DNA from: Clostridia bacterium
Lineage (GTDB): Bacteria; Bacillota; Clostridia; Christensenellales; Borkfalkiaceae
DNA length: 64,000 nucleotides
Assembly (NCBI GenBank): GCA_017468085.1
Contig: JAFUJR010000034.1
Location: 1 to 64,000, forward strand
Direction of reading: 5' to 3'
Shown: positions 6,535-51,170 of the stretch, one piece after another
How the letters are laid out: each line of letters opens with the position of its first letter
Numbering within the stretch: the first letter of the stretch is position 1
Program-made: the position numbers and the translations under genes
The notes under the pieces: model-generated
What the model was told of the DNA's origin: nothing
The model's input: only the letters and a program-made list of their open reading frames with translations
Database searches by the model: none

Positions 6535-6538
6535 AAAA

Positions 6539-7012: not shown

Positions 7013-7078
7013 CCGTGTCCGCGTTGAACGGCGGAAACGTAAACATATTTAACAATAAATTATTAATAGGAGAATACG

Positions 7079-9514: not shown

Positions 9515-9519
9515 ACACC

Positions 9520-9607
9520 TTGAATATAGTGGCAAAGCGGCTTGGGGCAAGATCTGTCCCAAGTTGCTCTTGCGGATCGCCACTTGCGGTGGCACTCAAA
9601 GAGAATT
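9520..9607 (+). other. Nested inverted repeat in intergenic gap
   Basis: Between the lipoprotein stop and the next start, outer arms agtggc/gccact enclose inner arms cttggg/cccaag, and a further small hairpin gccacttgcggtggc abuts the next start. There is no T-run, so it is not a classical terminator. It could stabilise or process the mRNA between the exported proteins and the cytoplasmic DUF6259-type protein. Confidence 0.35.
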
Positions 9608-35404: not shown

Positions 35405-35417
35405 TCAAAAAATGGAA

Positions 35418-35448
35418 GGGTCGTCCCAAACGGACGGCTCTTTTTTTG
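35418..35448 (+). terminator. Terminator of pfkA
   Basis: Stem GGGTCGTCC / GGACGGCTC followed by seven Ts. Confidence 0.85.
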
Positions 35449-35479
35449 TGAAAATTCGGAAAAATTCTTAAAATAGGTA

Positions 35480-35508
35480 TTGAAATTTGCGTCTGTTTAT
35501 AGTATAAT
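35480..35508 (+). promoter_or_regulatory. SigA promoter of the pfkB-family kinase
   Basis: TTGAAA (35480-35485), 17-base spacer, TATAAT (35503-35508). It overlaps the longest ORF start and so supports ATG 35552. Confidence 0.8.
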
Positions 35509-35551
35509 AAAAAAGGATGGTAAAACAATTCTTTCCGCAGGGGGCGGACAA

Positions 35552-36475
35552 ATGATTTTAACGGTATGTATGAGTCCTTGTACGGACTTGACGATAGAGG
35601 TAGATTCTTTAAATATAGGCAAAACGAACGTGGTAAAAAGCCGTACTTTCTCTTTGGGCGGTAAGGGTATCAACGTTGCCGTAGGCATAAAGCGTTTGGG
35701 CGGCGACGTGTATACGACGGGCGTTATGTATCAAGAAAACGGGTATTTATTCGAGGACGCTTTGCGCAACGAGGGTATTCCGTTTACCTTTGTTTGGAAT
35801 AAGGGCAGGGCGCGTGAAAATTTGAAGTTCATCGACAATCGGGCTATGCTCACGGAAGTCAACGACGTCGGCGCGCCGGTGGAAAAGGAAACGACGGACG
35901 CGATATTGGCGCAGGTGGTAACGCTTTCCCAAAAGAGCAACGTTACCGTTTTGTCGGGCGGTTTGCCGCGCGGGCTTGGCGAGGGCTATTACGGCCATCT
36001 TGCCGCGGCGGTGGATAAAAACTCCCTTAAAATCGTAGACGCGGTGGGACAGCGCATGTTTTACGCTTTAAACGAGGGCGTGGATTTGGTAAAGCCAAAC
36101 CTTGACGAGCTGGAAAACGCCATCGGCAGACGGGTGGAAAGCAAGGAGGATATGCTTGCGGGCTGTTACGAGTTACTTGATAGGGGCGCAAAACGGGTCA
36201 TGCTTTCCTTGGGGAAACAAGGCGCGGTGATTACGGACGGCAGACTCAATTATTATTGCAAGAGTTTAAACGTAGCCGTCAATTCCACGGTGGGCGCAGG
36301 GGACAGCATGGTCGCGGCGGCGGCTTTGCAGTTAGAGCAAGACGCGGACCTTTACGATATTTTACGCCACGGCGTAGCGGCGGGCACGGCAAGAGTGATG
36401 TCGGTTGGACAGCTCTCTTTCACCCAAGAAAAATACGTCGAAGTACTTAATAATTTAATTATCCGCGAAATTTAA
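35552..36475 (+). CDS. PfkB-family kinase, 1-phosphofructokinase/tagatose-6-phosphate kinase type
   Basis: 307 residues from ATG 35552 with AGGGGG upstream. The N-terminal sugar site SLGGKGINVAVGIKRLGG and the C-terminal catalytic loop STVGAGDSMVAA are the two PfkB signatures; KPNLDELE is typical of FruK/LacC. It phosphorylates a sugar phosphate, most likely fructose 1-phosphate. No fructose PTS gene is adjacent, so the substrate is uncertain. Monocistronic, with its own promoter and terminator. Confidence 0.85.
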   Translation: MILTVCMSPCTDLTIEVDSLNIGKTNVVKSRTFSLGGKGINVAVGIKRLGGDVYTTGVMYQENGYLFEDALRNEGIPFTFVWNKGRARENLKFIDNRAMLTEVNDVGAPVEKETTDAILAQVVTLSQKSNVTVLSGGLPRGLGEGYYGHLAAAVDKNSLKIVDAVGQRMFYALNEGVDLVKPNLDELENAIGRRVESKEDMLAGCYELLDRGAKRVMLSLGKQGAVITDGRLNYYCKSLNVAVNSTVGAGDSMVAAAALQLEQDADLYDILRHGVAAGTARVMSVGQLSFTQEKYVEVLNNLIIREI

Positions 36476-37484: not shown

Positions 37485-37517
37485 AAAAAGGGCTCGATTA
37501 TGCGGGCCCTTTTTTTA
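37485..37517 (+). terminator. Terminator of the membrane protein gene
   Basis: Stem AAAAAGGGCtCG / CGgGCCCTTTTTTT. Confidence 0.85.
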
Positions 37518-37604: not shown

Positions 37605-37633
37605 TTGTGATTGCGAGGGAGTTGTGGTATAAT
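37605..37633 (+). promoter_or_regulatory. SigA promoter of the malate-to-succinate operon
   Basis: TTGTGA (37605-37610), 17-base spacer, TATAAT (37628-37633), 64 bases before the first start codon. No terminator is seen until 50228, so it may transcribe 12 genes over 12.6 kb. Confidence 0.75.
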
Positions 37634-37696
37634 AGAGTTGTATTAGTGTGCGGTAATGTACTTAAAATGAAAAAAATAAAAATGGAGATATAAACT

Positions 37697-38647
37697 ATGA
37701 ACAACAAAGTTACAATCATCGGCGCAGGTTCGGTAGGCGCAACGGTTGCGTACACGTTGGTAGCAACCGGCTCGGTTGCGGAAATCGTTTTGATTGACGT
37801 AAACGAAGCGAAAGCAAGAGGGGAGGCTATGGATATTCTCCAAGCTACGCCCTATCTCTCGCCTGCAAAAATCTACTTCGGTACGTATGAAGACGCAGTC
37901 GGTTCTGATATCATCGTCGTTACCTCCGGCGTTGGCAGAAAGCCCGGTCAGTCCCGTATCGACCTCACACAGACAAACGTAAACATTTTGAAGAGCATCG
38001 CTCCTCAAATCGTGAAGTACGCGCCCGACGCATTGTACTTGTTCGTTGCAAACCCCGTAGACGTACTCACCTACGTGTTCCACAAAATCACGGGCGTACC
38101 CAAAAACCGCATCATAGGTACGGGCTGCACCCTCGATAGCATTCGTTTAAGAACGCGCCTTTCCGAATTATATTCGGTAAATCAAAAACAAGTACACGCA
38201 TACGTACTCGGCGAACACGGCGATTCTTCCTTTGTGGCTTGGTCTACGGCGGATATTTCGGGTATTCCTCTTGAAGAATACGAAAATACGCTTACGGAAA
38301 AGGACGCGTTGAAGGTTTCTCCTTATAGCCGTGAAGAGGTAGAAGAATACGTGAAGAAATCGGGCGGTAAAATTATCGCGGGCAAGGGCGCAACTTTCTA
38401 CGGTATCGCGGCTTGCGTAACGCAAATTATCAACTGCATCTATTCCAGCGCGTACACCATTTTGCCCGTATCCACGGTTTTGGACGGTGAATACGGCATT
38501 TCCGACGTAGCGCTTTCCACCCTTTGCGCAATCGGCAACGAGGGGATCGTAACGACGCTTACCCCCAAACTTTCCGACGAGGAAGTTGAAAAGATGAGAC
38601 ACAGCGCAGACGTTTTGAAAGGCGTTATCGCGCAAATCGAAATTTAA
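37697..38647 (+). CDS. mdh: Malate dehydrogenase of the LDH fold (Arg specificity residue)
   Basis: 316 residues. Rossmann motif [14 protein letters not shown]; catalytic Asp148, Arg151 and His175 (GEHGDSSF). Overall it reads like an L-lactate dehydrogenase ([16 protein letters not shown] with the LDH Thr234). But the specificity loop is [11 protein letters not shown]: Arg81 replaces the Gln of LDH (Gln102 in Bacillus numbering) and matches malate dehydrogenases, where this Arg binds the second carboxylate. Fumarase follows 20 bases later in the same operon. I therefore call malate dehydrogenase (oxaloacetate + NADH to malate); lactate dehydrogenase remains possible because of Thr234. Confidence 0.75.
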
Positions 38648-38667
38648 TCGAATACGGAGAAAGAACT

Positions 38668-40044
38668 ATGGAATATCGCATTGAAAAGGATACGATGGGC
38701 GAAATGCAAGTCCCCGCCGACAGATATTGGGCGGCGCAAACGCAGAGGAGCTTTCAAAATTTCCGTATCGGTACGGAAGTTATGCCCCGTGAAATCACGC
38801 ACGCGTTCGGCATTTTGAAAAAGGCGGCGGCGCTTGCAAACTGCAAGCTCGGCAAACTCCCCGAAGAAAAAAAAGACGCCATCTGCGCGGCTTGCGACGA
38901 AGTTATTTCGGGCGAGCTCAACGGGCATTTCCCTCTCGTAGTATGGCAGACGGGCAGCGGTACGCAGTCGAATATGAACGCGAACGAAGTTATCGCAAAC
39001 CGTGGTAACGAAATTGCAGGCAAAAAACTGCTCCACCCCAACGACGACATCAACAAGAGCCAAAGCTCCAACGATACTTTCCCTACGGCTATGCACATCG
39101 CGGCAGTCGTAGCAATCGAAGATAAGCTCTTCCCCGCGATGGATAAGCTTATCGCAACGCTTAAACGGTTGGAAACGGAAAACGAGGGGATTGTTAAGAG
39201 CGGCAGAACCCACCTTCAAGACGCAGTTCCCATCGCATTCTCGCAGGAAATCAGCGGTTGGACGAACATGGTCGAAAAGGCAAAAGCGCAATTACAGCTT
39301 GCGCTCCCCGGGCTTAAAGAGCTTGCGCTCGGCGGCACGGCTGTCGGCACGGGCTTGAATGCGCCCAAGGGCTTCGCGGAAGAGGTCGCGGCGCAGGTTT
39401 CCGCATTGACGGGCAAGGCGTTCGTTACGGCGGCGAACAAATACCATGCGCTTACGGCTAAGGACGAGCTCGTATTCGCGCACGGCGCGCTCAAGGCGTT
39501 GGCTTGCAATTTGATGAAGATTGCAAACGACGTTCGTTGGCTTGCAAGCGGTCCTCGCGACGGTCTTGGCGAAATTTTTATTCCCGAAAACGAACCCGGT
39601 TCTTCCATTATGCCAGGTAAGGTAAATCCCACGCAGTGCGAATCGATGACGATGGTTGCCGTACAGGTTATGGCAAACGACGTAGCGGTAGGCGTAGGCG
39701 CTTCGCAGGGCAACTTTGAACTCAACGTATTTATGCCCGTCATTATTTATAATTTCTTGCAATCGGTACGTTTGCTTGCAGACGGTATCACGTCCTTCGA
39801 GGCGAATTGCGTAACGGGTATCAAAGCAAACAAAGAAAAGATGCACCACAACCTTTATAACTCCTTAATGCTCGTTACCGCGCTCAACCCTTACATCGGT
39901 TACGAAAACGCGGCGAAGACGGCAAAGAAGGCGTATAAAGAAAATATTTCCTTGAAAGAAGCGTGCGTTGCGCTCGGTTTCTTGACGGCGGAAAAATTCG
40001 ACGAAGTATTCCGTCCTGAGGAAATGGCATATCCCCAAAAATAA
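38668..40044 (+). CDS. fumC: Class II fumarate hydratase
   Basis: 458 residues behind GGAGAAAG. Fumarase/aspartase signature [16 protein letters not shown]; substrate-site motifs [19 protein letters not shown] and [11 protein letters not shown]. Interconverts malate and fumarate without an Fe-S cluster. Aspartate ammonia-lyase is the near relative; the malate dehydrogenase upstream and fumarate reductase downstream favour fumarase. The HdrB-like gene starts 22 bases later. Confidence 0.92.
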
Positions 40045-40066
40045 GCAAAGAATAAGGTAGCGTATT

Positions 40067-40846
40067 ATGAAAATCAGTTATTATCCCGGTTGTACGCTCA
40101 AAACCAAAGCAAAACAGCTTGACGTAACGGCTCGTCTTTGCGCAAAGGCTTTGGGCGTAGAAATGGAGGAAATTGAAAATTGGCAGTGTTGCGGCGCCGT
40201 CTATCCAATGGGCACGGACGAAATCGCAACCAAGCTCTCGGCTGTACGCGCGCTCGATCACGCAAAGCATAACGGCGGCAAGCTGTTGACGCTCTGCTCT
40301 GCGTGTCATAACGTAATCAAGCGCACCAACGAGGATATGAAAACGAACGAGGATATTTGCTTCCGCGCAAATAATTATTTAAAACTTGACGAGCCCTACA
40401 AAGGGGAAACGGAGGTACTGCATTATCTCGAAATGCTGAAAAACGTCGTCGGCTTTGATAATATCAAGAAAGCGGTGGTGAAGCCTTTAGGAAGAAAGAT
40501 CGGCGCCTACTACGGCTGTCTGCTCCTTCGTCCCAGCGGCGTTATGGCGTTTGACAACCCCGAAAATCCGACGATCATCGAGGACTTTATCCGTGCCATC
40601 GGCGGCACGCCCGTCGTTTATCCTTTCCGTAACGAATGTTGCGGAGCGTACGTATCCTTAAAAAATAGCGACTTGCCCAAAGAAAAGAGCCGCAAAGTAC
40701 TTAACAGCGCAAAAGAAAAGGGCGCGGAAGAGGTCATCACCGCGTGTCCGCTTTGCTTGTATAACCTGCAAGTAAACGGCGGCAATATCCTGCCCGTGAA
40801 ATACTTTACGGAATTGCTCGCAGAGGCATTGGGGGTAGAGGCATGA
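40067..40846 (+). CDS. hdrB: HdrB-like heterodisulfide reductase subunit
   Basis: 259 residues with two CCG domains. CCG1: Cys9, Cys41-Cys42, Cys77, Cys80. CCG2: Cys151, Cys191-Cys192, Cys227, Cys230. These are the ligands of the two non-cubane 4Fe-4S clusters of HdrB, with a conserved spacing. In methanogens HdrB reduces CoM-S-S-CoB; bacteria lack this, so in bacterial clusters it passes electrons to another acceptor. It is slightly shorter than the roughly 290 of methanogen HdrB. The stop overlaps the hdrC start (ATGA), implying coupled translation. Confidence 0.87.
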   Translation: MKISYYPGCTLKTKAKQLDVTARLCAKALGVEMEEIENWQCCGAVYPMGTDEIATKLSAVRALDHAKHNGGKLLTLCSACHNVIKRTNEDMKTNEDICFRANNYLKLDEPYKGETEVLHYLEMLKNVVGFDNIKKAVVKPLGRKIGAYYGCLLLRPSGVMAFDNPENPTIIEDFIRAIGGTPVVYPFRNECCGAYVSLKNSDLPKEKSRKVLNSAKEKGAEEVITACPLCLYNLQVNGGNILPVKYFTELLAEALGVEA

Positions 40847-41229
40847 CGAAACAAGAACGCATTGAAAATTTAAATAGATTAAGCGGCACGGACGTAAGAA
40901 AGTGCATGAAGTGCGGCAAATGTTCGGGGCGCTGTCCTGCGTTTAAGGATATGGATATTAAACCCCATCAGTTCGTGTCTATGCTTTCTCAAGGCAAAAT
41001 TGACCGGCTTTTAGAAAGCAAAGCGATTTGGAACTGTTTAGCGTGTATGGCTTGCGTAGAACGTTGCCCTCGCGGCGTAGCGCCTGCGGCTGTCGTGGAA
41101 GCCGTGCGCGATACGGTGGTAAGGGCACAGGGCGCAAACGGGCTTAAAGCAGAGGATATTCCTCCTATCGTGGACGAATTTATCCCTCAGCAACTTTTGG
41201 TCAGCGCGTACAGAAAGTATAACAAGTAA
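40843..41229 (+). CDS. hdrC: HdrC-like 4Fe-4S subunit
   Basis: 128 residues with two classic 4Fe-4S motifs, CMKCGKCSGRCP and CLACMACVERCP, in the HdrC arrangement. Wires HdrA to HdrB in the known complex. It overlaps hdrB by four bases. A small hairpin (CCGAA/TTCGG) lies in the 57-base gap before hdrA. Confidence 0.87.
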   Translation: MTKQERIENLNRLSGTDVRKCMKCGKCSGRCPAFKDMDIKPHQFVSMLSQGKIDRLLESKAIWNCLACMACVERCPRGVAPAAVVEAVRDTVVRAQGANGLKAEDIPPIVDEFIPQQLLVSAYRKYNK

Positions 41230-41286
41230 CTCCCCGAACGGCAAATTCGGTTAAGAAGAAAAATCTAAATAAAGAGAGTGAATAAA

Positions 41287-43278
41287 ATGCAAAGAATAGG
41301 TGTTTTTATTTGTTGGTGCGGCAGTAACATCGCGGCAACGGTAGACGTGGAAAGAGTAGCGGAGGTCATCAAAAACGAGCCAGGCGTCGTATTTTCCACC
41401 AACTACCAATATATGTGCTCCGAAAACGGTCAGCAGCTTATCAAACAGGCAATCAAAGAGCATAATTTGACGGGTATCGTCATCGGCGCTTGCTCGCCCA
41501 GAATGCACGAGCCTACTTTCCGCAAAGCGGCGGAAGCGGCAGGGCTCAATCCGTACATGGTAGAGGTTGCGAATATCCGCGAACATTGTTCTTGGATACA
41601 TAAGGATATGGAGGAAGCCACTGAAAAAGCGGTTATCCTCGTCCGTACGGCAATCGCAAAAGTAAAGCTTAACGCCCCCCTCATGGCGGGGGAAAGTCCC
41701 GTAATCAAGCGCGCCCTCGTTATCGGCGGCGGTATTGCGGGTATTCAAGCCGCGCTTGACATCGCAGACGCTGGCTTTGAAGTAGATATCGTGGAAAAGA
41801 ACGCAACGATTGGCGGCAGAATGGCGCAAATCGACAAAACCTTCCCCACGCTCGACTGTTCGGCTTGTATCTTGACGCCGAAAATGGTTGACTGCGCTCA
41901 GCACGAAAAAATCGACATCCTTTCCTATTCGGAAATCGAAGAGGTAAAGGGCTTCGTCGGCAATTTCAACGTAAAAATCCGTCGCAAGGCAAGATACGTT
42001 GACGAAACTAAGTGCACGGGCTGTAAGCTCTGTATGGAAAAATGTCCCTCCAAGAAAGGACTTAACGAGTTCAATATGAACTTGAATACCCGTACGGCGA
42101 TCCACATTCCGTTCGCGCAAGCAATCCCCAACGTAGCGGTTATCGACGCGGCGCAATGTATCAAGATGAAAACGGGTAAATGCGGTATTTGCCAAAAATT
42201 CTGCGACGTTGGCGCAATCGATTTTGAGCAGAAGGATACGTTTATTGACCGTCAGTACGGCGCTATCGTCGTAGCGACGGGCTTCAAGCCTATCGATTTG
42301 GATAATTTCAACGAGTACGGTTACCACGATAATAAGGACGTCGTTACCTCCCTCGAACTCGAAAGATTGATGAACGCGGCAGGGCCGACGAACGGCGTTT
42401 TGCTTCGTCCCTCCGACGGCAAGCACCCGAAGGTAATCACCTTTATTCAATGCGTAGGCTCGCGTGATACCAGCGGTTGCGGTAAACCTTATTGCTCCAA
42501 AATCTGCTGTATGTACACGGCGAAGCACGCAATGCTTATCCGTGAAAAATATCCCGACACCGAAGTGCACGTATTCTACATCGACGTGCGTACGCCCGGT
42601 AAAAACTACGACGAATTCTTCCGTCGCGCGGTAGAACAGTACGGCGTAGACTACATCAAAGGTATGGTCGGCAAGGTATACAACGAAAACGGCAAGTTGA
42701 TGGTACAGGGCTCTAACCTTATCGACAACGAGCAGATCACCATCGAATCCGACCTCGTCGTTCTCGCGGCGGCGATTGAACCCGAGCCTTCGGTAAGAAA
42801 GATCGCAACCCTCTTGACGACGAGTATAGACACCAACAATTTCTTGACGGAATCTCACGCGAAGCTCCGTCCCGTAGAAAGCCCTACGGCGGGCGTATAT
42901 CTCGCAGGCGTATGCCAAGGCCCTAAGGACATTCCCGAAACGGTTTCGCAGGCTTCCGCTTGTGCGGCAAAGGTTATCGGCTTGCTTGTAAAAGATAAGC
43001 TGAAAACCAACCCTTGCGTAGCAATGCCCGACGAAATGATGTGTAACGGTTGCAGTCAATGCGCTAACGTCTGTGCATACGGCGCAATCTCGTACGTAGA
43101 TAAGGAATTCCGTCTCGGCGGCGGCAAAACGGAAATTCGCCGCGTAGCGTCCGTAAATCCCGCGGTATGCCAAGGTTGCGGCGCTTGTACGGTAACTTGT
43201 CCTTCCGGAGCTATGGATTTGAAAGGATTTAGCTCCAAGCAAATTATGTCGGAGGTAGAAGCAATATGCAAGATGTAA
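41287..43278 (+). CDS. hdrA: HdrA-like FAD subunit (candidate bifurcation site)
   Basis: I take ATG 41287, about 9 bases after AAAGAGAG, over the GTG at 41278. 663 residues. N-terminal HdrA domain with FICWCGSNIA (Cys9, Cys11) and Cys69 and Cys101. FAD motif VIGGGIAGIQAA (147-157), LDCSACILTPKM with Cys191 and Cys194, 4Fe-4S ligands Cys243/246/249/253, and a second set in GKCGICQKFC. Two C-terminal ferredoxin motifs (CNGCSQCANVC and CQGCGACTVTC) could deliver low-potential electrons to ferredoxin. In methanogen Hdr this FAD bifurcates electrons. The C-terminus overlaps the next gene by 13 bases. Confidence 0.9.
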   Translation: MQRIGVFICWCGSNIAATVDVERVAEVIKNEPGVVFSTNYQYMCSENGQQLIKQAIKEHNLTGIVIGACSPRMHEPTFRKAAEAAGLNPYMVEVANIREHCSWIHKDMEEATEKAVILVRTAIAKVKLNAPLMAGESPVIKRALVIGGGIAGIQAALDIADAGFEVDIVEKNATIGGRMAQIDKTFPTLDCSACILTPKMVDCAQHEKIDILSYSEIEEVKGFVGNFNVKIRRKARYVDETKCTGCKLCMEKCPSKKGLNEFNMNLNTRTAIHIPFAQAIPNVAVIDAAQCIKMKTGKCGICQKFCDVGAIDFEQKDTFIDRQYGAIVVATGFKPIDLDNFNEYGYHDNKDVVTSLELERLMNAAGPTNGVLLRPSDGKHPKVITFIQCVGSRDTSGCGKPYCSKICCMYTAKHAMLIREKYPDTEVHVFYIDVRTPGKNYDEFFRRAVEQYGVDYIKGMVGKVYNENGKLMVQGSNLIDNEQITIESDLVVLAAAIEPEPSVRKIATLLTTSIDTNNFLTESHAKLRPVESPTAGVYLAGVCQGPKDIPETVSQASACAAKVIGLLVKDKLKTNPCVAMPDEMMCNGCSQCANVCAYGAISYVDKEFRLGGGKTEIRRVASVNPAVCQGCGACTVTCPSGAMDLKGFSSKQIMSEVEAICKM

Positions 43279-43721
43279 CGACGGAAAAGAAAGAATTTAC
43301 GCCTACTATCGTGGCGTTTTGCTGTAACTGGTGCTCGTACGCAGGCGCAGACCTTGCAGGCTCCAGCCGTTTGACCTATCCCGCAAACGTAAAAATCATT
43401 CGCGTACCTTGCTCCTGCCGTGTGAATCCCATGTTCGTGCTTAAAGCGTTCCAGCAAGGCGCGGACGGCGTGATCCTTTGCGGTTGCCACCCCGGCGACT
43501 GCCATTACGTAACGGGCAATTATTACACCAGAAGAAGAATGGCGCTTTTGTATAGCTTCCTTAATTATATGGGTATCGAAAAAGAACGCACCCGCGTAGA
43601 ATGGGTTTCTGCGGCGGAGGGCGCGCGCTTTGCGGCTGTCATGAACGATTTCGTGAAGCAAGTAGCCGATCTTGGCGAAAACAAACGCCTCACCGACCTT
43701 CGCGTAAAGGAGGGCGAATAA
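43266..43721 (+). CDS. flxD: FlxD/MvhD-like 2Fe-2S electron-transfer subunit
   Basis: 151 residues; overlaps hdrA. MvhD/FlpD pattern: FCCNWCSYAGAD (Cys19, Cys20, Cys23), VPCSCR (Cys49, Cys51), and GCHPGDCHY (Cys74, Cys79). In Mvh-Hdr and Flx-Hdr complexes this subunit carries electrons from the donor module to HdrA. Strong AAAGGAGGG for the next gene lies in its 3' end. Confidence 0.88.
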   Translation: MQDVTTEKKEFTPTIVAFCCNWCSYAGADLAGSSRLTYPANVKIIRVPCSCRVNPMFVLKAFQQGADGVILCGCHPGDCHYVTGNYYTRRRMALLYSFLNYMGIEKERTRVEWVSAAEGARFAAVMNDFVKQVADLGENKRLTDLRVKEGE

Positions 43722-43722
43722 T

Positions 43723-44703
43723 ATGAAAGACGTACAATTGAAAATGTTAGAACGCGCAAAAGAACTGCTTGCAAGCGGCGAGGTAGCGCGCGTTGTCGGC
43801 TGGCAGAAAGGGGAATTTTTCTACGACCCCACGCCCGCGGTATTTGAAAGCGTAGAGGAGCTTGAAAAGGGCTTCGTTTACGATTGGTTCTGCGGCGCAA
43901 ATCTTTCCAAATATTTAATTCAAATCAGCAAGAAAGAAGGCAAAACGGCAGTTTTCCTCAAGCCTTGCGATACGTATAGCTTTAATCAGCTCGTAAAAGA
44001 ACACCGTATCAACCGCGAAAAGGTTTACGTTATCGCAGTAGAATGTCTTGGCAAGCTCAACGTAGAGGCAATCAAGGCAAGCGGCGTTTCCATGATGACG
44101 GGGGTTGAGGTTGTTGATAAGCAAGTAAAGGTTTCTTCCCTCTACGGCGAGGTGGTGCTTAATAAGCCTGACGTCGTGCTTTCTAAGTGTGCGGTCTGCA
44201 ACAAAACGCACCAAGTCAAGGACGAAGAAATCATCCTTCACGAACGCTCCGAACGCGACGTAGACCGCTTTGCGGAAGTGGCAAAATTGGAAGCGATGAC
44301 GGAGGACGAACGCTTTGCGTTCTGGCGTGAACAGCTTTCCAAGTGTATCCGTTGCAACGCTTGCCGTAACGTATGTCCTGCATGCTCTTGCGTGAAGTGC
44401 GTATTCGATAATCCCGCTTCGGGCATTGCGGCAAAGGCAAACGACGATACGTTTGAAGAACAGATGTTCCACATCATTCGTGCGTTCCACGTGGCTGGTC
44501 GTTGTACCGACTGCGGCGAATGCTCGCGTGTATGCCCTCAAAATATTCCTTTGCATTTGCTCAACAGAAAGTTCATCAAAGACATCGACGGCTTGTACGG
44601 CGAATATCAGGCAGGGGAAACGGCAGAAGGCAAAACTCCTCTTACTTCGTATACGGAAGAGGACGCAGAGCCTAACGACGTTCTTAACGGGGAGGCAAAA
44701 TAA
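43723..44703 (+). CDS. flxB: FlxB-like 4Fe-4S oxidoreductase subunit
   Basis: 326 residues. The N-terminal two thirds resembles the FrhB/FdhB-type domain (FLKPCDTYSFNQLVKEH, VECLGKLN). The C-terminal third has ferredoxin motifs CIRCNACRNVCP, with an extra CSCVKC, and CTDCGECSRVCPQ. This layout fits FlxB of the FlxABCD-HdrABC NADH dehydrogenase/Hdr complexes. It overlaps the next gene by one base. The exact subunit letter is inferred from order and content. Confidence 0.75.
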   Translation: MKDVQLKMLERAKELLASGEVARVVGWQKGEFFYDPTPAVFESVEELEKGFVYDWFCGANLSKYLIQISKKEGKTAVFLKPCDTYSFNQLVKEHRINREKVYVIAVECLGKLNVEAIKASGVSMMTGVEVVDKQVKVSSLYGEVVLNKPDVVLSKCAVCNKTHQVKDEEIILHERSERDVDRFAEVAKLEAMTEDERFAFWREQLSKCIRCNACRNVCPACSCVKCVFDNPASGIAAKANDDTFEEQMFHIIRAFHVAGRCTDCGECSRVCPQNIPLHLLNRKFIKDIDGLYGEYQAGETAEGKTPLTSYTEEDAEPNDVLNGEAK

Positions 44704-45731
44704 TGTTGAAAATTTCTAAAAGCAATTTGAACGCATTATATGCAAAAATCAACGAAACGATGGGGCTTTTTATTCCCATCAAAAAGGCAGGCGAGGTGAA
44801 TTACCACGTTTGGGGCGAGGGGAAAGAAGTTTCCTTGGAAACCCTCAAGACGGTGAAATCCCCTAAAAACATGTTCTTCCCGCAAACGGAAAATATGATG
44901 AAATTCAAGACGGAAGGGAAGAATATCGAAATTATCGACGTTCGTGACGAAAAAAGACCTTTCGTACTCTTCGGCGTTAAGCCTTGCGATTATAAGGCGA
45001 TTGAGGTTTTGGATAAGGTATTCCTCGCCGACCCCGTAGATACTTATTATAAGGCAAGAAGAGACGCTACGACTATCGTTACGCTCGCTTGCTCCAAGCC
45101 CGAAGAAAGCTGCTTTTGTAAGGTGTTCGATATCGACGCTACGGGCGCTTACGGCGACGTAACCGTTTGGCTCGACGACGAAAATCTTTATTGGCAGGCA
45201 AACACCCAAAAGGGCGAAGCGCTTACTGCGGCTGTAAAAGAGTTGTTTGCAGACGGCGGCGAAGAGGAGGTTGCGGCGCAACAATCCGCTACTAAGGCTA
45301 TTATTGACCAATTGCCTTTTTCTAACCTCGATTTAAGCAAATTCAAGCCCGAAAACTTGAACGAATTGTTCGACGCGACAGAATGGGAAGAAATGAGCGA
45401 GGCTTGCCTCGGCTGCGGTACGTGTACTTTCGTATGTCCTACCTGCCAATGCTTCGACATTCGCGATTTTAAAACGCACGAAGGGGTTATCCGCTACCGT
45501 TGCTGGGATTCCTGTATGTATTCCGACTTCACGTTGATGGCGCACGGCAACAGCCGTACCACGCAAATGCAGAGATTCCGTCAAAGATTTATGCACAAGC
45601 TCGTATATTATCCTTCGCAAAACGACGGCTTGTATTCCTGCGTCGGCTGCGGCAGATGCGTAAACAAGTGTCCTCAAAATCTTAATATCGTTAAGGTCAT
45701 CAAAAAGCTGGGAGGTAAAGCAAATGATTGA
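44703..45731 (+). CDS. flxC: FlxC-like (AsrA-type) 4Fe-4S subunit
   Basis: 342 residues. Resembles anaerobic sulfite reductase subunit A and hydrogenase beta subunits: FGVKPCDYKAIEVLDKVF, CSKPEESCFC, then 4Fe-4S motifs CLGCGTCTFVCPTC and CVGCGRCVNKCPQN. No sulfite reductase catalytic subunit (AsrC) is nearby, so an electron-transfer role between FlxA and the rest is more likely. It overlaps flxA by 8 bases. Confidence 0.75.
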   Translation: MLKISKSNLNALYAKINETMGLFIPIKKAGEVNYHVWGEGKEVSLETLKTVKSPKNMFFPQTENMMKFKTEGKNIEIIDVRDEKRPFVLFGVKPCDYKAIEVLDKVFLADPVDTYYKARRDATTIVTLACSKPEESCFCKVFDIDATGAYGDVTVWLDDENLYWQANTQKGEALTAAVKELFADGGEEEVAAQQSATKAIIDQLPFSNLDLSKFKPENLNELFDATEWEEMSEACLGCGTCTFVCPTCQCFDIRDFKTHEGVIRYRCWDSCMYSDFTLMAHGNSRTTQMQRFRQRFMHKLVYYPSQNDGLYSCVGCGRCVNKCPQNLNIVKVIKKLGGKAND

Positions 45732-46551
45732 AGAAACGCTAATTCCTAAAATCGGCGTCGTAACGGACATCCGCAAGGATACGCCCGACGTAAAAACCTT
45801 CCGCGTCGTTGGCACGGACGGTAAAAAATTGTTTCAACATATGCCCGGTCAATGCGCTATGGTATCCATTCCCGGCGTTGGCGAGTGTATGTTCTCCATT
45901 ACCTCTTCGCCCACAAACGAAGAATATATGGAATTTTCCATCAAAAAGTGCGGTTGCGTAACGGAAGTTATCCATGCATTAGAGGTTGGTCAGCAGATCA
46001 CCGTTCGCGGACCTTACGGCAAAAACTTCCCCGTAGAAGAAGATTTCAAGGGCAAGGACTTGCTCTTTATTGCAGGCGGTATCGGTCTTGCGCCCTTGCG
46101 TAGCGTTATCAACTACGTTCGTCATTATCGCGCAAATTACGGCAAAGTCGTTATCGTTTACGGCGCGAGAAGTAAGGACGACCTCGTAGACATCGACGAA
46201 ATCCAAAACGAATGGGTAAACGAGCCGAACACGGACGTATACCTCACCATTGACCGCCCTCAAGAGGGGTGGGACGGACACGTTGGCTTCGTTCCTTCCT
46301 ACGTAAAGGAATTGGGACTCGACCCGAATATGACGGCAGTGCTTTGCGGGCCTCCCATCATGATCAAATTCACGTTGCAGGGGCTTTTGGAACTCGGTTT
46401 TGACAAATCGCGTATCTTCACGACGTTAGAGCTTCGCATGAAGTGCGGCGTAGGTAAGTGCGGCAGATGTAACGTAGGCGACAAGTTCGTTTGCAAGGAC
46501 GGTCCCGTATTCCGTATGACCGAGCTTGACGAGCTTCCCGATGAGTATTAA
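45724..46551 (+). CDS. flxA: FlxA-like (AsrB-type) FAD/NAD(P)H oxidoreductase subunit
   Basis: 275 residues of the ferredoxin-reductase fold. FAD region around MPGQCAMVSIPG and MFSITSSP; NAD-binding region LLFIAGGIGLAPLRS; C-terminal 2Fe-2S ligands CGVGKCGRCNVGDKFVC as in AsrB and PyrK. It is the expected entry point for NADH electrons in Flx-Hdr complexes. NADH versus NADPH preference cannot be read by eye. Confidence 0.82.
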   Translation: MIEETLIPKIGVVTDIRKDTPDVKTFRVVGTDGKKLFQHMPGQCAMVSIPGVGECMFSITSSPTNEEYMEFSIKKCGCVTEVIHALEVGQQITVRGPYGKNFPVEEDFKGKDLLFIAGGIGLAPLRSVINYVRHYRANYGKVVIVYGARSKDDLVDIDEIQNEWVNEPNTDVYLTIDRPQEGWDGHVGFVPSYVKELGLDPNMTAVLCGPPIMIKFTLQGLLELGFDKSRIFTTLELRMKCGVGKCGRCNVGDKFVCKDGPVFRMTELDELPDEY

Positions 46552-46564
46552 GGAGAAAACACAC

Positions 46565-47239
46565 ATGGAAAATATGGTAAACGTATTTCTTTTCGGTAAG
46601 CGTTATCAAGTACCGGAAAGCTTGACGATTATGAAGGCGATGGAATACGCAGGCTATCAACTCGTTCGCGGCTGTGGTTGCAGAAACGGGTTCTGCGGCG
46701 CTTGCGCTACCATTTACCGCATTAAAGGTCAGCAAGAATTAAAAACCTGCCTTGCTTGTCAGCAACAGGTAGAAGAGGGGATGTACGTAGCGACGTTGCC
46801 TTTCTTCCCCTTGGTAAAGCAGGTTTACGACATCAACCAAATCAAGCCTACGCAGCAAATTATGATGCAGCTTTACCCCGAAATTTATTCGTGTATCGGT
46901 TGTAACGCTTGCACCAAGAGCTGCACGCAAGAGCTCAACGTTATGCAATATATTGCATACGCGCAACGCGGCGAGTATGAAAAAGCGGCGGAAGAGAGCT
47001 TCGACTGCGTAATGTGCGGCGTATGTTCTTCCCGTTGCCCCGCAGGTATTTCCCACCCGCAGGTTGCGGTTTTGGCGCGCAGACTTACGGGTAAATATCT
47101 TGCGCCGAAGAGTCAGCATTTGATAAATCGCGTAGCGGAAATCGACGCAGGCGATTGCAAGGCGGCTTTGGAAGCGATCATGAACACGCCTTTGGAAGAA
47201 CAAAAGCATCTCTATAACAATAGAGAAATCGAAAAATAA
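46565..47239 (+). CDS. frdB: Soluble fumarate reductase iron-sulfur subunit
   Basis: Start at ATG 46565 behind TAAGGAGA. 224 residues. N-terminal plant-type 2Fe-2S domain (Cys37/39, Cys44, Cys47, Cys62, Cys65), then two complete 4Fe-4S motifs, Cys110-113-116-120 and Cys148-151-154-158. Quinol-linked FrdB/SdhB has a 3Fe-4S cluster in place of one of these; the full second 4Fe-4S set suits a soluble enzyme such as thiol:fumarate reductase TfrB, but without TfrB's fused HdrB domain, which is here a separate gene. Partner of the flavoprotein 11 bases downstream. Confidence 0.82.
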   Translation: MENMVNVFLFGKRYQVPESLTIMKAMEYAGYQLVRGCGCRNGFCGACATIYRIKGQQELKTCLACQQQVEEGMYVATLPFFPLVKQVYDINQIKPTQQIMMQLYPEIYSCIGCNACTKSCTQELNVMQYIAYAQRGEYEKAAEESFDCVMCGVCSSRCPAGISHPQVAVLARRLTGKYLAPKSQHLINRVAEIDAGDCKAALEAIMNTPLEEQKHLYNNREIEK

Positions 47240-47250
47240 GGAGGTAAGCC

Positions 47251-48855
47251 ATGTATCACTACACAGATGAACAATTACAATCTATGAAGAAAGTGGAAGC
47301 AAGCCGTGCCTCCCGTATCGAAAATCTGCACAAGAGAATGACCGCAGAAGAAAAAGACGCTGTTTTGGCAGAATTTCACCCTGATTATATCACTTCCGCG
47401 TATGAAGAATTGAAAGTAGGGAAAAATAAAGGCGGTAAGGTCTTACACGAGCTTGCAGCTTTGTTGCAAGGTCATTCCCGTATCAAGGATATGAATATTG
47501 ACCTCAGTAAAATCGACTACGACGTGGACGTACTCGTTATCGGCGGCGGCGGCGCTGGTTCGTCCGCGGCTATCGAAGCGCACGAACGCGGCGCAAACGT
47601 TATGATCGCAACCAAGCTCCGTCTTGGCGACGCAAACACGGCGATGGCAGAGGGCGGTATTCAAGCGGCGGATAAACCCAACGACAGCCCTGCTACGCAC
47701 TATCTTGACGCGCTCGGCGGCGGCCACTTTATGAATAAGCCGGAGCTTTTGTATAAGCTCGTAAATGAAGCGCCCGAAGCGATTTTGTGGCTCAATAACC
47801 TCGGCGTTATGTTCGATAAGGAAGAGGACGGTACGATGGTTACGACGCACGGCGGCGGTACTTCCCGTAAGCGTATGCACGCTTGCCGCGACTATTCGGG
47901 TTCGGAAATTATGCGTACCCTCCGCGACGAAGTATTCAACCGCGGTATCACCGTCGTTGACTTTACGTCCGCAATCGAACTCATCAAGGATACGGACGGT
48001 AAAATCGCAGGCGCGGTCTTGATGAACATGGAAACCAAGGAAATTTTGATTGCAAGAGCAAAAACCGTCGTTATCGCAACGGGCGGCGCGGGCAGATTGC
48101 ACTATCAAGGCTTCCCTACGTCCAATCACTACGGCGCAACGGCAGACGGCTTAGTTCTCGCATACAGAGCGGGCGCAAAGTTGCTTTATCCCGAAACGCT
48201 TCAATATCACCCTACGGGCGCGGCAGAGCCTACGCAAATCTACGGCGCGCTCGTAACCGAAAAAGTCCGTTCGCTCGGCGCACAACTCGTCAACAAAGAC
48301 GGCGAGGCGTTCGTGTATTCCTTGGAAACGCGCGACGTAACGGCATCCTCGATTATTCGTGAGTGCAAAGCGCGCGGCAACGGTATCAAGACGACGGACG
48401 GCGAGGGCGTATGGCTGGATACGCCGCTTATCGACATTTTAAACGGCGAAGGCACGATTGAAAAGCGTATTCCCGCAATGCTTCGTATGTTCGGTAAATA
48501 CGGCATCGATATCCGTAAAGAACCCATTTTGATTTACCCCACGCTTCATTACCAAAACGGCGGTATCGACATCGGCGCAAACGGTATGACCTGCATCGAA
48601 AACTTGTACGTAGCAGGCGAAGCGGTAGGCGGTATCCACGGCACGAACCGTTTGATGGGCAACTCTTTGCTCGATATCATCGTATTCGGAAGAAACGCAG
48701 GACAACAGGCAGGCGAAAAGTGGAAGAGCGTTGAGCTTAAAGAGCTTACCCTTTCTCACGTGGACGCGTTTGAAAAGGAACTCGAAGAAGCAGGTATATC
48801 TTCCGACGTATGCTCGCCCAAACTTTTGCCCGATTACAGAAGACAGGCAAACTAA
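47251..48855 (+). CDS. frdA: Fumarate reductase flavoprotein subunit, non-covalent FAD type
   Basis: 534 residues behind AAGGAGG. Residues 1-88 are a helical extension not seen in standard FrdA; the FAD motif VIGGGGAGSSAA follows at 96. Fumarate-site residues are all present: His320 (QYHPTG), Glu337/Arg340 (TEKVRSLGAQL), His433 and Arg467 (GTNRLMGNSL). The histidine that binds FAD covalently in membrane FrdA/SdhA (SHTVAAEGG) is Asn129 here (ANTAMAEGG), so FAD should be bound non-covalently. No membrane anchor subunit is encoded. Reduces fumarate to succinate in the cytoplasm. Alternatives such as L-aspartate oxidase are disfavoured because nadA and nadC are absent. Confidence 0.87.
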   Translation: MYHYTDEQLQSMKKVEASRASRIENLHKRMTAEEKDAVLAEFHPDYITSAYEELKVGKNKGGKVLHELAALLQGHSRIKDMNIDLSKIDYDVDVLVIGGGGAGSSAAIEAHERGANVMIATKLRLGDANTAMAEGGIQAADKPNDSPATHYLDALGGGHFMNKPELLYKLVNEAPEAILWLNNLGVMFDKEEDGTMVTTHGGGTSRKRMHACRDYSGSEIMRTLRDEVFNRGITVVDFTSAIELIKDTDGKIAGAVLMNMETKEILIARAKTVVIATGGAGRLHYQGFPTSNHYGATADGLVLAYRAGAKLLYPETLQYHPTGAAEPTQIYGALVTEKVRSLGAQLVNKDGEAFVYSLETRDVTASSIIRECKARGNGIKTTDGEGVWLDTPLIDILNGEGTIEKRIPAMLRMFGKYGIDIRKEPILIYPTLHYQNGGIDIGANGMTCIENLYVAGEAVGGIHGTNRLMGNSLLDIIVFGRNAGQQAGEKWKSVELKELTLSHVDAFEKELEEAGISSDVCSPKLLPDYRRQAN

Positions 48856-48879
48856 AATAGGGGAATAATAAAATAACTT

Positions 48880-48921
48880 GGACAAAACGCACGAGGTAGT
48901 ACGCTTTGTGCGTTTTCGTCC
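48880..48921 (+). other. Long hairpin between frdA and the transporter gene
   Basis: GGACAAAACGCAC (48880-48892) pairs with GTGCGTTTTcGTCC (48908-48921), a 13-bp stem with one bulge and no T-run. It may stabilise or process the transcript so that the transporter is expressed at a different level from the upstream enzymes. Confidence 0.6.
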
Positions 48922-48946
48922 GTCAAAATATGGAGGTTTAACAAAA

Positions 48947-50209
48947 ATGTATTTTTATGAGGTATTAAATTCCTTGCTGATACCTTTGTTTGTCGCGCTT
49001 TTTGTTATTGTATTCGGTTTACTTATCGGCAAAATCGAAATCAAAGGCGTTTCGCTCGGTACGGCAGGAGTTTTGCTCGTCGCTATTTTGGTCGGCGTGG
49101 TATTCTCGTTCGTTCCGTCGTTTACAATCGGCGGGAAAGAAATCGTCCTTTGGAGCGTAGCGGAAAAATTCAAAGTAACGATTGACGGCGTTGAAAAAAC
49201 TTTCTCGACTTTCTCTACGCAGAGCGTATACGACACTATTTCCAAGCTTGGTACGGTATTATTCGTAACGGCAGTCGGACTTATCGCAGGTCCTAAATTC
49301 TTCCGTTCTTTCAATAAGAGCATGATGTCCTACGTAGCGATGGGCGCGGTAATCGTTATTATCGGCGTTGGTATCACGGTTGCGCTTGCGGCTATCGACG
49401 GCAGTATGAATATCGGTATGGCAACGGGCTTGCTTTCGGGTTCGCTTACGTCTACGCCCGCGTTCTCTGCGGCAAAGGAATCGGCAGGCAAACTTGCGGA
49501 CGACGTTATCGCAGGCTATGGTATCGGCTATTTGTACGGCGTGCTCGGCGTAGTGCTTTTCGTGCAGATTATGCCTAAAATTTTGAAGGTGGACATTGCA
49601 AAGGAAAGAGAGAGTTTCGTTGCGGCAAACACCTTGCAAATCAAGGACGACGGCAAAAAACGTATTCAAATTGATGAATTCGGTTTCTTCCCGTTCATTA
49701 CGACGGCGGTTTTGGGCTTGCTTATCGGCTGTATCAAAGTGCCTATCGGCGGCGGCAACTATTTCAGTTTCGGTTCGTCGGGCGGTACGCTTATCGCAGG
49801 TCTTATCGTAGGGCATTTCGGACACTTTGGTAAAATCGATATGAAGGTTTCCAAAGAAAGTTTGAATTTCTTCCGTGAACTTGGTTTGATTTTGTTCCTC
49901 GTCGGCGCAGGTATTCCCGGCGGCGTGAACTTCATTTCCGCGTTCCATTGGAAGTATATTTTGTACGGAATCGTAATGGCAACCGTGCCTATGGTCGTTG
50001 GTTTTATTCTTGGTAAGTTCGTTTTCAAACTTTCCATTTTCAACAACTTGGGCTCTATCACGGGCGGTATGACTTCTACGCCGGCGCTCGGTTCGCTCAT
50101 TTCCGTGGCGGGTACGGACGACGTTTCTTCTGCATATGCGGCAACCTATCCGTTTGCATTGGTGCTTATCGTAGTATCGTGTAATTTGCTTGTATTGTTG
50201 CCTATTTAA
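48947..50209 (+). CDS. AspT/YidE (AAE) family transporter, candidate succinate exporter
   Basis: Start ATG 48947 with GGAGGT at 48932-48937; the longer frame from 48878 passes through the hairpin. 420 residues, about ten membrane segments, two homologous halves each with the family signature (GSLTSTPAFSAAKE and GGMTSTPALGSL). AspT itself and its relatives carry a large cytoplasmic loop with TrkA-C domains; this loop is largely missing. The family includes aspartate:alanine exchangers and the Corynebacterium succinate exporter SucE. The operon ends in succinate formation, so succinate export or aspartate/succinate exchange is the inferred role. Confidence 0.8.
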   Translation: MYFYEVLNSLLIPLFVALFVIVFGLLIGKIEIKGVSLGTAGVLLVAILVGVVFSFVPSFTIGGKEIVLWSVAEKFKVTIDGVEKTFSTFSTQSVYDTISKLGTVLFVTAVGLIAGPKFFRSFNKSMMSYVAMGAVIVIIGVGITVALAAIDGSMNIGMATGLLSGSLTSTPAFSAAKESAGKLADDVIAGYGIGYLYGVLGVVLFVQIMPKILKVDIAKERESFVAANTLQIKDDGKKRIQIDEFGFFPFITTAVLGLLIGCIKVPIGGGNYFSFGSSGGTLIAGLIVGHFGHFGKIDMKVSKESLNFFRELGLILFLVGAGIPGGVNFISAFHWKYILYGIVMATVPMVVGFILGKFVFKLSIFNNLGSITGGMTSTPALGSLISVAGTDDVSSAYAATYPFALVLIVVSCNLLVLLPI

Positions 50210-50227
50210 CAGAGATAAATTAAAAAG

Positions 50228-50257
50228 AAAATCGCGAGAATTTTCTCGCGATTTTTT
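50228..50257. terminator. Bidirectional terminator of the malate-to-succinate operon and dgk gene
   Basis: Perfect stem AAAATCGCGAGAA / TTCTCGCGATTTT flanked by T-runs in both directions. Confidence 0.9.
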
Positions 50258-51170
50258 ATATGCGCTTTAAGTTTTGGGGCACAATCATGTTTATTTTCTT
50301 AGGTACGACTTCTACGTGGATTTTTCCGTTACAGCCTTTTTCGCCGTCGAAATTCCACACAACGTCGTCGGCTACGTCCACGTCAAAGCTCGTTCCTTCA
50401 AGGTGAAGCAGACTTTCGTTTTTTACACGCCGTCTGCCAAATAGGAAGAGGACTGCCATAACAAGCAAGGAAATAAACTTTTTTAAAGGACCGCCCTTAG
50501 CTTTTTTCTCTTCTTTGATAACGGTAACCTCAATTTTCCCGTCTTGCAGGCTTGCAAGCTCGTTTACCTTAAAACCCGAAACGTAACGGCTGTTGATAAA
50601 CAAAATCAGCATACCCTGCATACGTTGCTTTTCCGATTTGCAATCGATGTCAAAGAAATCGAAATTGAAGTTGTGTTTGATACCTTCTACGTAATAGGCG
50701 AGTTTGCCAACGCTGTTTTTGTCAATCTGCGGCGTGTTGTAGGTCGCGCTTGTAAACGCGCCCGCCGCAACCACGTACATTGCGTAATGGTCGTTGACTT
50801 TCATGCAGTCCAGCATCTCATTTTTGCCCGTTTTGATAACTTTTAAGGCTTTTTTGATATTGCACGGAATTTGCAGAGTATGCGCAATGTCGTTTACCGT
50901 TCCGCTGGGAATATATCCAAGCTCGGGCAGGTTGTCAAGGTCGGCAATACCTTGCAAAACTTCATTAAACGAGCCGTCTCCGCCCGAAAATACAATCGCG
51001 TCGTATTTACCGACAGCCTCGCGGGCGGCGCGTTTCATGTCGCCCGAATATTGCGTTGCATATACGGTAACGTCGTCGTATTTTTCAGCAAGATTTTTGG
51101 TGATTAAATGTAATTTTTTATGAATTTTACCTCGCCCACTGACGGGATTATAAATAAAAATACAATTCAT
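50256..51170 (-). CDS. Diacylglycerol/lipid kinase family protein (DgkB/YegS-like)
   Basis: 304 residues, typical length. NPVSGRGK at the N-terminus, catalytic GGDGSFNEVLQG, and PSGTVNDIAHTL (usually GTxNDFA) in the nucleotide site. A hydrophobic stretch (FISLLVMAVLFLFG) near residues 230-245 is a possible membrane-contact segment. It phosphorylates diacylglycerol or a similar lipid at the membrane; the exact lipid is unknown. Monocistronic and convergent with the transporter gene. Confidence 0.87.
   Translation of the reverse strand: MNCIFIYNPVSGRGKIHKKLHLITKNLAEKYDDVTVYATQYSGDMKRAAREAVGKYDAIVFSGGDGSFNEVLQGIADLDNLPELGYIPSGTVNDIAHTLQIPCNIKKALKVIKTGKNEMLDCMKVNDHYAMYVVAAGAFTSATYNTPQIDKNSVGKLAYYVEGIKHNFNFDFFDIDCKSEKQRMQGMLILFINSRYVSGFKVNELASLQDGKIEVTVIKEEKKAKGGPLKKFISLLVMAVLFLFGRRRVKNESLLHLEGTSFDVDVADDVVWNFDGEKGCNGKIHVEVVPKKINMIVPQNLKRI

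What the first reader, a model, noticed from the sequence alone, without database searches (positions are those of the whole stretch)
37605..50257. Operon coding a candidate NADH-driven, electron-bifurcating fumarate reductase (Hdr-Flx-Frd)
Seen: malate dehydrogenase, fumarase, HdrB, HdrC, HdrA, FlxD, FlxB, FlxC, FlxA, fumarate reductase Fe-S and flavoprotein subunits, and an AAE transporter lie in one direction. Gaps are short or overlapping, one promoter precedes them and no terminator appears until 50228. Known: Flx-Hdr complexes oxidise NADH and can bifurcate electrons at HdrA, and MetF/MetV can replace heterodisulfide as the acceptor in related HdrABC-MvhD clusters. Inference: fumarate serves as the high-potential acceptor, so NADH oxidation would give succinate plus reduced ferredoxin without membrane quinones. 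I know of no described Hdr-Flx-fumarate reductase; I could not check this.
Basis: partly seen in the sequence, partly recalled or inferred. Interest (0 to 1): 0.88.

Follow-up and report, generated by a model that had tools for sequence, protein, structure and literature searches.

The report
Flx-Hdr-linked fumarate reductase operon
A genome of what looks like a gut Clostridia bacterium carries one gene block that could let NADH drive fumarate to succinate while also charging ferredoxin; the block is real and widely conserved, but the same operon and idea were already published for another Clostridium-like bacterium, and I found no direct test of the mechanism.

Summary
Twelve co-directional genes (37697-50209) encode an LDH/MDH-family dehydrogenase, FumC, HdrB-C-A, FlxD and three more Flx subunits, FrdB, FrdA and an AspT/SucE-family transporter, with junctions of -13 to +57 bp. 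The core hdrBCA-flxDBCA-frdBA is complete and in the same order in 53 of 53 named loci, 22 of 22 order loci and 11 of 12 class loci with enough upstream sequence. FrdA active-site residues and HdrB/HdrC cluster cysteines are retained. No UbiA prenyltransferase was found in the own draft genome, so a quinol donor is unlikely. The mechanism (NADH -> Flx -> HdrA, bifurcating to ferredoxin and, via HdrBC-FrdB, to fumarate) is the best reading but inferred. The novelty claim fails: the same 'succinate operon' and bifurcation proposal are in print (PMC7282089, citing a 2019 preprint). Added here: breadth of conservation; separability of frdBA outside the class (15 of 25 testable loci have no hdr/flx nearby; 4 of 20 genomes searched have no HdrA match); and an unusual FrdA (conserved ~88-residue N-terminal extension, no PF02910 match). 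A new member of a known kind whose mechanism I found untested.

The parts
37697..38647 (+). LDH/MDH-family dehydrogenase, probably malate dehydrogenase (oxaloacetate to malate)
   Evidence: Pfam Ldh_1_N/C; NCBIfam LDH and MDH models both over cut-off, LDH higher; Arg in GRKPGQSR, its MDH meaning recalled; same-strand homologue upstream in 42 of 51 named loci with 10 kb upstream
38668..40044 (+). class II fumarase FumC (malate to fumarate)
   Evidence: TIGR00979 fumC_II 733 bits, cut-off 665; upstream in 47 of 51 named loci
40067..40846 (+). HdrB-like subunit, two CCG domains (ten cluster cysteines)
   Evidence: PF02754, 2 stretches; TIGR03288 134 bits, below cut-off 345; PDB 8rvv_B E 1.4e-40; C9,41,42,77,80,151,191,192,227,230 in 98 of 98 aligned rows
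40843..41229 (+). HdrC-like subunit, two [4Fe-4S] motifs
   Evidence: TIGR03290 64.8 bits, below cut-off 160; eight Cys in 98 of 98 aligned rows
41287..43278 (+). HdrA, putative FAD electron-bifurcating subunit (GTG start at 41278 also possible)
   Evidence: NF040770 HdrA2 801 bits, below cut-off 1100; PDB 5odc_A E 4.1e-206; 22 Cys in 97 of 97 rows, N-terminal Cys 9, 11, 44, 69, 101 in 93-96 of 97
43266..43721 (+). FlxD / MvhD-like subunit, link between Flx and HdrA
   Evidence: PF02662 FlpD E 3e-56; matches positions 639-774 of the HdrA2 model
43723..44703 (+).
   Evidence: 4Fe-4S dicluster domains; position conserved
44703..45731 (+). Flx Fe-S subunit (labelled FlxC), AsrA/sulfhydrogenase beta-like
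   Evidence: PF17179; NF040829 195.6 bits and TIGR02910 AsrA 153.2 bits, both below cut-off
45724..46551 (+). FlxA, FAD/NAD(H)-binding subunit, AsrB/sulfhydrogenase gamma-like; expected NADH entry
   Evidence: PF00175, PF10418, PF00970; PRK08345 219.8 bits, AsrB 195.9 bits, below cut-offs
46541..47239 (+). FrdB-like iron-sulfur subunit: one [2Fe-2S] and two [4Fe-4S] motifs (TTG start at 46526 possible)
   Evidence: Fer2 and Fer4 dicluster domains; 14 of its 15 Cys at 95-100% in 37 sequences; matches positions 18-100 of the TfrB model
47251..48855 (+). FrdA-like flavoprotein, fumarate site; conserved ~88-residue N-terminal extension, no PF02910 match
48878..50209 (+). AspT/AAE-family transporter, possible succinate exporter (ATG start at 48947 possible)
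   Evidence: PF06826 E 2e-58; TIGR01625 over cut-off, aspartate-alanine antiporter model below cut-off; homologue downstream in 49 of 59 named loci; SucE of C. glutamicum is listed in the AAEx family (PMC7419537 passages)

Best explanation
A soluble NADH-dependent fumarate reductase. The dehydrogenase and FumC supply fumarate; FlxA takes a hydride from NADH; the other Flx proteins and FlxD pass electrons to HdrA; HdrA's FAD splits each pair, one electron to ferredoxin and one through HdrC/HdrB and FrdB to the FrdA flavin, where fumarate becomes succinate, perhaps exported by the AAE-type transporter. Net: 2 NADH + fumarate + 2 Fd(ox) -> 2 NAD+ + succinate + 2 Fd(red). Shown here: gene content, order, conservation, retained cofactor ligands and active-site residues, no detected quinone prenyltransferase. 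Inferred: one physical complex, the electron route, bifurcation, and the transporter's substrate.
For: Same-order block in 53 of 53, 22 of 22 and 11 of 12 testable loci. FrdA active-site residues invariant or nearly so. HdrA strongly related to HdrA of the methanogen complex, PDB 5odc; 22 HdrA Cys in 97 of 97 rows, HdrB and HdrC ligands in 98 of 98. FlxA has NAD and FAD domains. The TfrB model (NF004898) is matched piecewise by FrdB (18-100), HdrC (126-219) and HdrB (262-465): in thiol:fumarate reductase these parts are one chain, a reason to expect contact. In the own genome no UbiA and no Complex1_49kDa; GTP-type PEPCK, PFOR and a group A6 [FeFe] hydrogenase with NuoF/NuoE-like neighbours are present, so oxaloacetate supply and a ferredoxin outlet exist. 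Free energy of the bifurcating reaction -18 to -49 kJ per succinate for the assumed potentials. In P. thermosuccinogenes the operon rose about 4-fold under CO2 limitation (not significantly for all subunits), and its authors note an earlier study in which high H2 nearly abolished succinate (PMC7282089 passages).
Against: I found no assay of the ferredoxin coupling. frdBA of the same family stands without hdr/flx in reach in 15 of 25 testable loci of other classes, and 4 of 20 genomes searched have no HdrA at E<=1e-40, so Frd can work with other donors. HdrB keeps all ten ligands and may reduce a disulfide rather than relay electrons. No RnfC over cut-off in the own genome (81.67% complete), so the gain from extra ferredoxin is unclear there; RnfC is over cut-off in 21 of 30 other carriers, absent in 9. 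The 12 listed genomes of the window's own family have no FrdA match. The arrangement with the full block upstream is not one clade on the FrdA tree (9 changes).
Confidence: 0.6

Rival explanations
1. NADH:fumarate reductase without bifurcation: Flx-Hdr-Frd is a straight electron wire (or only FlxABC feeds FrdB), and ferredoxin is not reduced.
For: Nothing in the sequence proves bifurcation; frdBA occurs in genomes without an HdrA match; the Blautia luti study draws a NADH-dependent fumarate reductase in its theoretical scheme but measured the activity with methyl viologen (PMC12773636 passages).
Against: HdrA is of the bifurcating type and keeps its cluster Cys; HdrA, HdrB and HdrC stay with frdBA in nearly every testable locus of the class, hard to explain for a merely downhill transfer.
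Confidence: 0.17
2. Thiol-linked coupling: HdrB reduces a small disulfide carrier, and Frd is fed by thiols or another carrier rather than by direct wiring.
For: HdrB keeps both CCG cluster motifs (98 of 98 rows); PMC11636981 names a DsrC-like protein as an alternative route for the symbiont cluster (passages); thiol:fumarate reductases exist.
Against: FrdB has no CCG domain, so Frd has no thiol site of its own unless HdrB supplies it; none of the twelve genes of the block is a small thiol carrier.
Confidence: 0.12
3. The complex runs in the oxidative direction: succinate plus reduced ferredoxin drive NAD+ reduction (confurcation).
For: Such modules are reversible in principle (established knowledge, recalled).
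Against: FrdA has Asn where SDH/QFR have the flavin-linking His (Asn 67, His 1 of 68; the meaning of that His is recalled), which fits fumarate reduction better; no methylmalonyl-CoA mutase match; the operon begins with fumarate-forming enzymes.
Confidence: 0.05
4. FrdA reduces another enoate or fumarate-like substrate, not fumarate.
Against: Here the neighbours are fumC and an MDH-like gene; elsewhere one tested locus has malic enzyme and class I fumarase (L210), one pyruvate carboxylase (L205) and one FumC (L213); catalytic residues of fumarate reductases are kept.
Confidence: 0.05

Closest known systems
Succinate operon / Flx-Hdr-linked fumarate reductase of Pseudoclostridium thermosuccinogenes (PMC7282089, passages; preprint 10.20944/preprints201912.0288.v1, title seen in its reference list only)
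   Same: Fumarate hydratase, Flx-Hdr genes (locus tags RS03360-30, seven if numbered in fives as I read them), fumarate reductase (RS03325-20), and a possible succinate transporter; same proposal of fumarate reduction linked to ferredoxin reduction
   Different: Other organism; here an LDH/MDH-family gene precedes fumC. I could not fetch the P. thermosuccinogenes genes by name, so sequence relationship and inner gene order were not compared
FlxABCD-HdrABC of Desulfovibrio vulgaris (Ramos et al. 2015, seen as a cited title)
   Same: Same Flx and Hdr parts by name
   Different: By recall, no fumarate reductase in that cluster and a disulfide as supposed acceptor; not compared here
Hdr-Flox and fumarate reduction in Desulfovibrio alaskensis G20 (Meyer et al. 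2014, seen as a cited title in PMC5861303)
   Same: Title links Hdr-Flox, Rnf and reduction of endogenous fumarate
   Different: Not read; whether the genes are linked is unknown to me
Thiol:fumarate reductase TfrAB of methanogens
   Same: FrdA-type flavoprotein; TfrB joins FrdB-like, HdrC-like and HdrB-like parts in one chain (model match pieces)
   Different: FrdA scores 356 bits against the TfrA cut-off 718; the parts are separate genes here, with Flx and HdrA added
flxABCD-hdrABC with tfrAB/korABCD in Thioflavicoccus and tubeworm symbionts (PMC6315080, PMC11636981, passages)
   Same: Flx-Hdr clustered with a fumarate reductase and a suggested shared complex
   Different: Interspersed with korABCD in an rTCA cluster; called TfrAB there; tfrAB expression differed from the rest of the cluster (PMC11636981)
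8-methylmenaquinol:fumarate reductase (SdhABE) and E. coli quinol:fumarate reductase
   Same: Flavoprotein plus Fe-S subunit; HdrB matches the SdhE model NF042965 (131 bits, cut-off 500)
   Different: Quinol-linked; no UbiA match in the own draft genome

Membership tests
[quoted passage not shown]
   (FlxB/FlxC assignment not verified)
[quoted passage not shown]
   5odc_A E 4.1e-206; 22 Cys 97 of 97, five N-terminal Cys 93-96 of 97
[quoted passage not shown]
   needs an assay
Fumarate reductase/succinate dehydrogenase flavoprotein superfamily | FAD_binding_2 fold and His/Arg/Thr/Glu active site | tested here: met
Quinone-linked fumarate reductase/succinate dehydrogenase | C-terminal PF02910 domain on the flavoprotein | tested here: not met
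   no PF02910 match at E<=1e-3; fold alignments to QFR FrdA do reach model residue 524 in some rows
Quinone-linked fumarate reductase/succinate dehydrogenase | a quinone-synthesis prenyltransferase in the genome | tested here: inconclusive
   no UbiA in an 81.67% complete genome, control 14 of 14
Thiol:fumarate reductase TfrAB | TfrA equivalog score | tested here: not met
   356 bits, cut-off 718
Thiol:fumarate reductase TfrAB | CCG (HdrB-like) part fused to FrdB | tested here: not met
   FrdB has no CCG domain; HdrB is a separate gene
8-methylmenaquinol:fumarate reductase | SdhA and SdhE equivalog scores | tested here: not met
   FrdA 229 bits, cut-off 1100; HdrB 131 bits, cut-off 500
Succinate operon of P. 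thermosuccinogenes | fumarate hydratase, Flx-Hdr genes, fumarate reductase genes, transporter gene in that order | tested here: met
   gene list in PMC7282089
Succinate operon of P. thermosuccinogenes | sequence orthology of the genes | not tested
   named genome not fetched; the one genome-contig scan kept the best 80 and did not include it

The most novel reading that the evidence does not exclude
Flx-Hdr-Frd is one soluble complex in which HdrB's two non-cubane clusters serve as a relay into FrdB, giving quinone-free, ferredoxin-charging fumarate reduction across many gut Clostridia; FrdBA is an exchangeable acceptor module that elsewhere in the phylum is plugged into HdrBC alone or into HdrBCA plus a large pyridine-nucleotide-oxidoreductase-like protein, and its conserved N-terminal extension is the docking element.
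Probability: 0.4. Interest if true: 0.68.

Novelty: new member of a known kind. Interest (0 to 1): 0.42.

Why it matters
If the mechanism holds, many Clostridia of animal guts would make succinate by a soluble route that also reduces ferredoxin, changing how NADH, H2 and energy budgets of gut fermentation are modelled (succinate formation would feed H2 or Rnf, not only compete with them). It would extend flavin-based bifurcation to a C4-dicarboxylate acceptor. The idea is already in print; the value now is that it is directly testable and that the gene block is common (54 of 391 sampled genomes of the class carry this FrdA family).

Tried and rejected
In those searches of the held open-access library I found no assay of the ferredoxin coupling; most subscription papers and preprints are not held (the 2019 preprint was not held). 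Strict linkage across the phylum was rejected. Assembly artefact was rejected: nine named MAG loci (L056-L064) carry FrdA at 95-96% identity and the same operon as far as their contigs reach, three of them on contigs over 100 kb. The fold comparison says little on the first ~70 residues of FrdA: a fifth or more of the rows span only model residues 70-524, so I claim nothing about that part's fold; the model has four segments under pLDDT 50. FrdB was not folded and the plain Foldseek search did not run.
Full report
What is there. The window holds twelve genes on the plus strand from 37697 to 50209. Family searches give, in order: an LDH/MDH-family dehydrogenase, class II fumarase, HdrB, HdrC, HdrA, FlxD/MvhD, two Fe-S Flx subunits, FlxA (FAD/NAD), an FrdB-like Fe-S protein, an FrdA-like flavoprotein, and an AspT/AAE-family transporter. 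Junctions run from -13 to +57 bp. Upstream is a plus-strand terminator-like hairpin at 37485-37514 and a promoter-like site at 37605-37633; downstream a hairpin at 50228-50255, listed on the minus strand, before a convergent gene at 50256-51170. The numbers of such sites in the region are within about one standard deviation of the shuffles, so a single transcript is plausible rather than shown.

Conservation. Many titles name sheep, goat, deer, buffalo or chicken gut samples; most are Clostridia MAGs, one is titled Treponema. The nearest, at 95-96%, come where the title tells from sheep colon, roe deer caecum and water deer caecum, so a ruminant-type gut origin of the window is likely. Of the 53 loci with at least 8.2 kb upstream, 53 have hdrB-C-A-flxD-B-C-A-frdB-frdA in that order; the other 27 are cut by contig ends. 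FumC lies upstream in 47 of 51, the dehydrogenase in 42 of 51, the transporter downstream in 49 of 59. In the class 57 of 391 genomes match at E<=1e-60, three of them distant (205-210 bits) and 54 family-level, the own included; of 12 that I fetched 11 have the block and one, L202, has hdr downstream of frdBA.

A discrete family. In the phylum search 73 of 398 genomes match, the own included. Outside the own genome there are 39 places in 38 genomes at 610-752 bits (52-64% identity); all others score 262.5 bits or less. The 39 begin to match at query residue 2-9, the others at 79-93: the N-terminal extension of about 88 residues belongs to the family.

Separability. Of 28 of these 39 places that I fetched, 25 had enough upstream sequence: none has the block in the same order, one (L196) has all parts in another order, 10 have HdrB in reach (L196, L199, L201, L212-L215, L217, L220, L221) and 15 have no hdr or flx gene in reach. 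Three (L199, L220, L221) have hdrCB directly before frdBA with no HdrA in reach; two (L201, L212) have hdrCB-hdrA, then a 1489- or 1070-residue Pyr_redox/Fe-S protein, then flxD and frdBA. Single loci whose neighbours I tested show malic enzyme and class I fumarase (L210), pyruvate carboxylase (L205) or FumC (L213), in favour of fumarate; the most diverged ones show MmgE/PrpD (L194), AtuA (L198), BCCT (L195) or a cytochrome b561-like Fe-S protein (L192). I searched 20 of these genomes for HdrA (16 with no hdr/flx seen in the fetched stretch, two of them with a short upstream; three hdrBC-only; one with all parts): 16 of 20 have a match at E<=1e-40, and G938, G858, G640 and G637 have none. On a tree of 68 FrdA sequences the arrangement labels cluster (15 changes against a shuffled mean of 30.8, as low in 0 of 200); the hdr-downstream and hdrBC-only sets each lie on one side of a branch with support 100/99, but the full-block set needs 9 changes, partly because loci cut by contig ends carry another label.

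Why a joint complex is reasonable. NCBIfam's TfrB model is hit piecewise by FrdB (18-100), HdrC (126-219) and HdrB (262-465): three genes here, one chain in thiol:fumarate reductase. That is a fusion argument for contact, not proof. The Hdr and Frd proteins do not reach the equivalog cut-offs of TfrA, TfrB, MFR or methanogen Hdr, so I do not file them there.

Cell context. The own genome (81.67% complete, 5.44% contaminated) has GTP-type PEPCK but no match to the ATP type, PFOR, and a group A6 [FeFe] hydrogenase (847 bits, cut-off 765) with NuoF- and NuoE-like neighbours. It has no match to UbiA (control 14 of 14), Complex1_49kDa or methylmalonyl-CoA mutase, and no RnfC over cut-off (seven weak matches). 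RnfC is over cut-off in 21 of 30 other carriers that I chose. So quinol is an unlikely donor; reduced ferredoxin could leave as H2 here, or through Rnf in many relatives. For 2 NADH + fumarate + 2 Fd(ox), with NADH at -320 or -280 mV, ferredoxin at -420 or -500 mV and fumarate at +33 mV, the free energy is -48.8 to -17.9 kJ per succinate.

Literature. PMC7282089 (passages) lists the P. [quoted passage not shown] It assumes that fumarate reductase is linked to ferredoxin reduction as proposed before, citing Koendjbiharie and van Kranenburg 2019 (title only seen; not held). PMC6315080 (passages) raises a complex of Flx-Hdr with OGOR and thiol:fumarate reductase; PMC11636981 (passages) gives expression data for that cluster and notes that tfrAB differed. 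PMC12773636 (passages) measured methyl-viologen fumarate reductase in the gut acetogen Blautia luti. In my searches I found no test of the ferredoxin coupling.

Verdict. Observation confirmed; mechanism plausible and unproven; not new as a kind. What this adds is the breadth of the conserved block, the discreteness of the FrdBA family, its modular use outside the class, and its unusual FrdA architecture.

Noticed in passing
L201 and L212 (other classes of the phylum): hdrCB-hdrA followed by a 1489- or 1070-residue Pyr_redox/Fe-S protein, flxD and frdBA: possibly an alternative NAD(P)H input to the same Frd module.
   Followed up: partly
L199, L220, L221: hdrC-hdrB directly before frdB-frdA with no hdrA or flx in reach: a split TfrB-like arrangement; the three genomes have 7 to 10 HdrA matches elsewhere.
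   Followed up: partly
genomes of the window's own family: The 12 listed genomes of the same family have no match to this FrdA, while other families of the order have it at up to 80-81% identity: patchy loss or transfer.
   Followed up: no
L192, L194, L195, L198: Most diverged FrdA relatives sit by a cytochrome b561-like Fe-S protein, MmgE/PrpD, a BCCT transporter or AtuA; substrate or donor may differ.
   Followed up: no
G000 contig C17 around 114000-118000 (L233, L239): NuoE-like, NuoF-like and group A6 [FeFe] hydrogenase genes in a row: a HydABC-type hydrogenase as possible ferredoxin outlet.
   Followed up: yes
window 34442-36475 and 51795-53201: Phosphofructokinase and a PfkB-family kinase upstream, pyruvate kinase (minus strand) downstream: central carbon genes near the operon.
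   Followed up: no
window 80-11725: Four large ORFs (1166, 970, 811, 727 aa) with DUF4838, no, List_Bact_rpt and DUF6259 matches; not studied.
   Followed up: no
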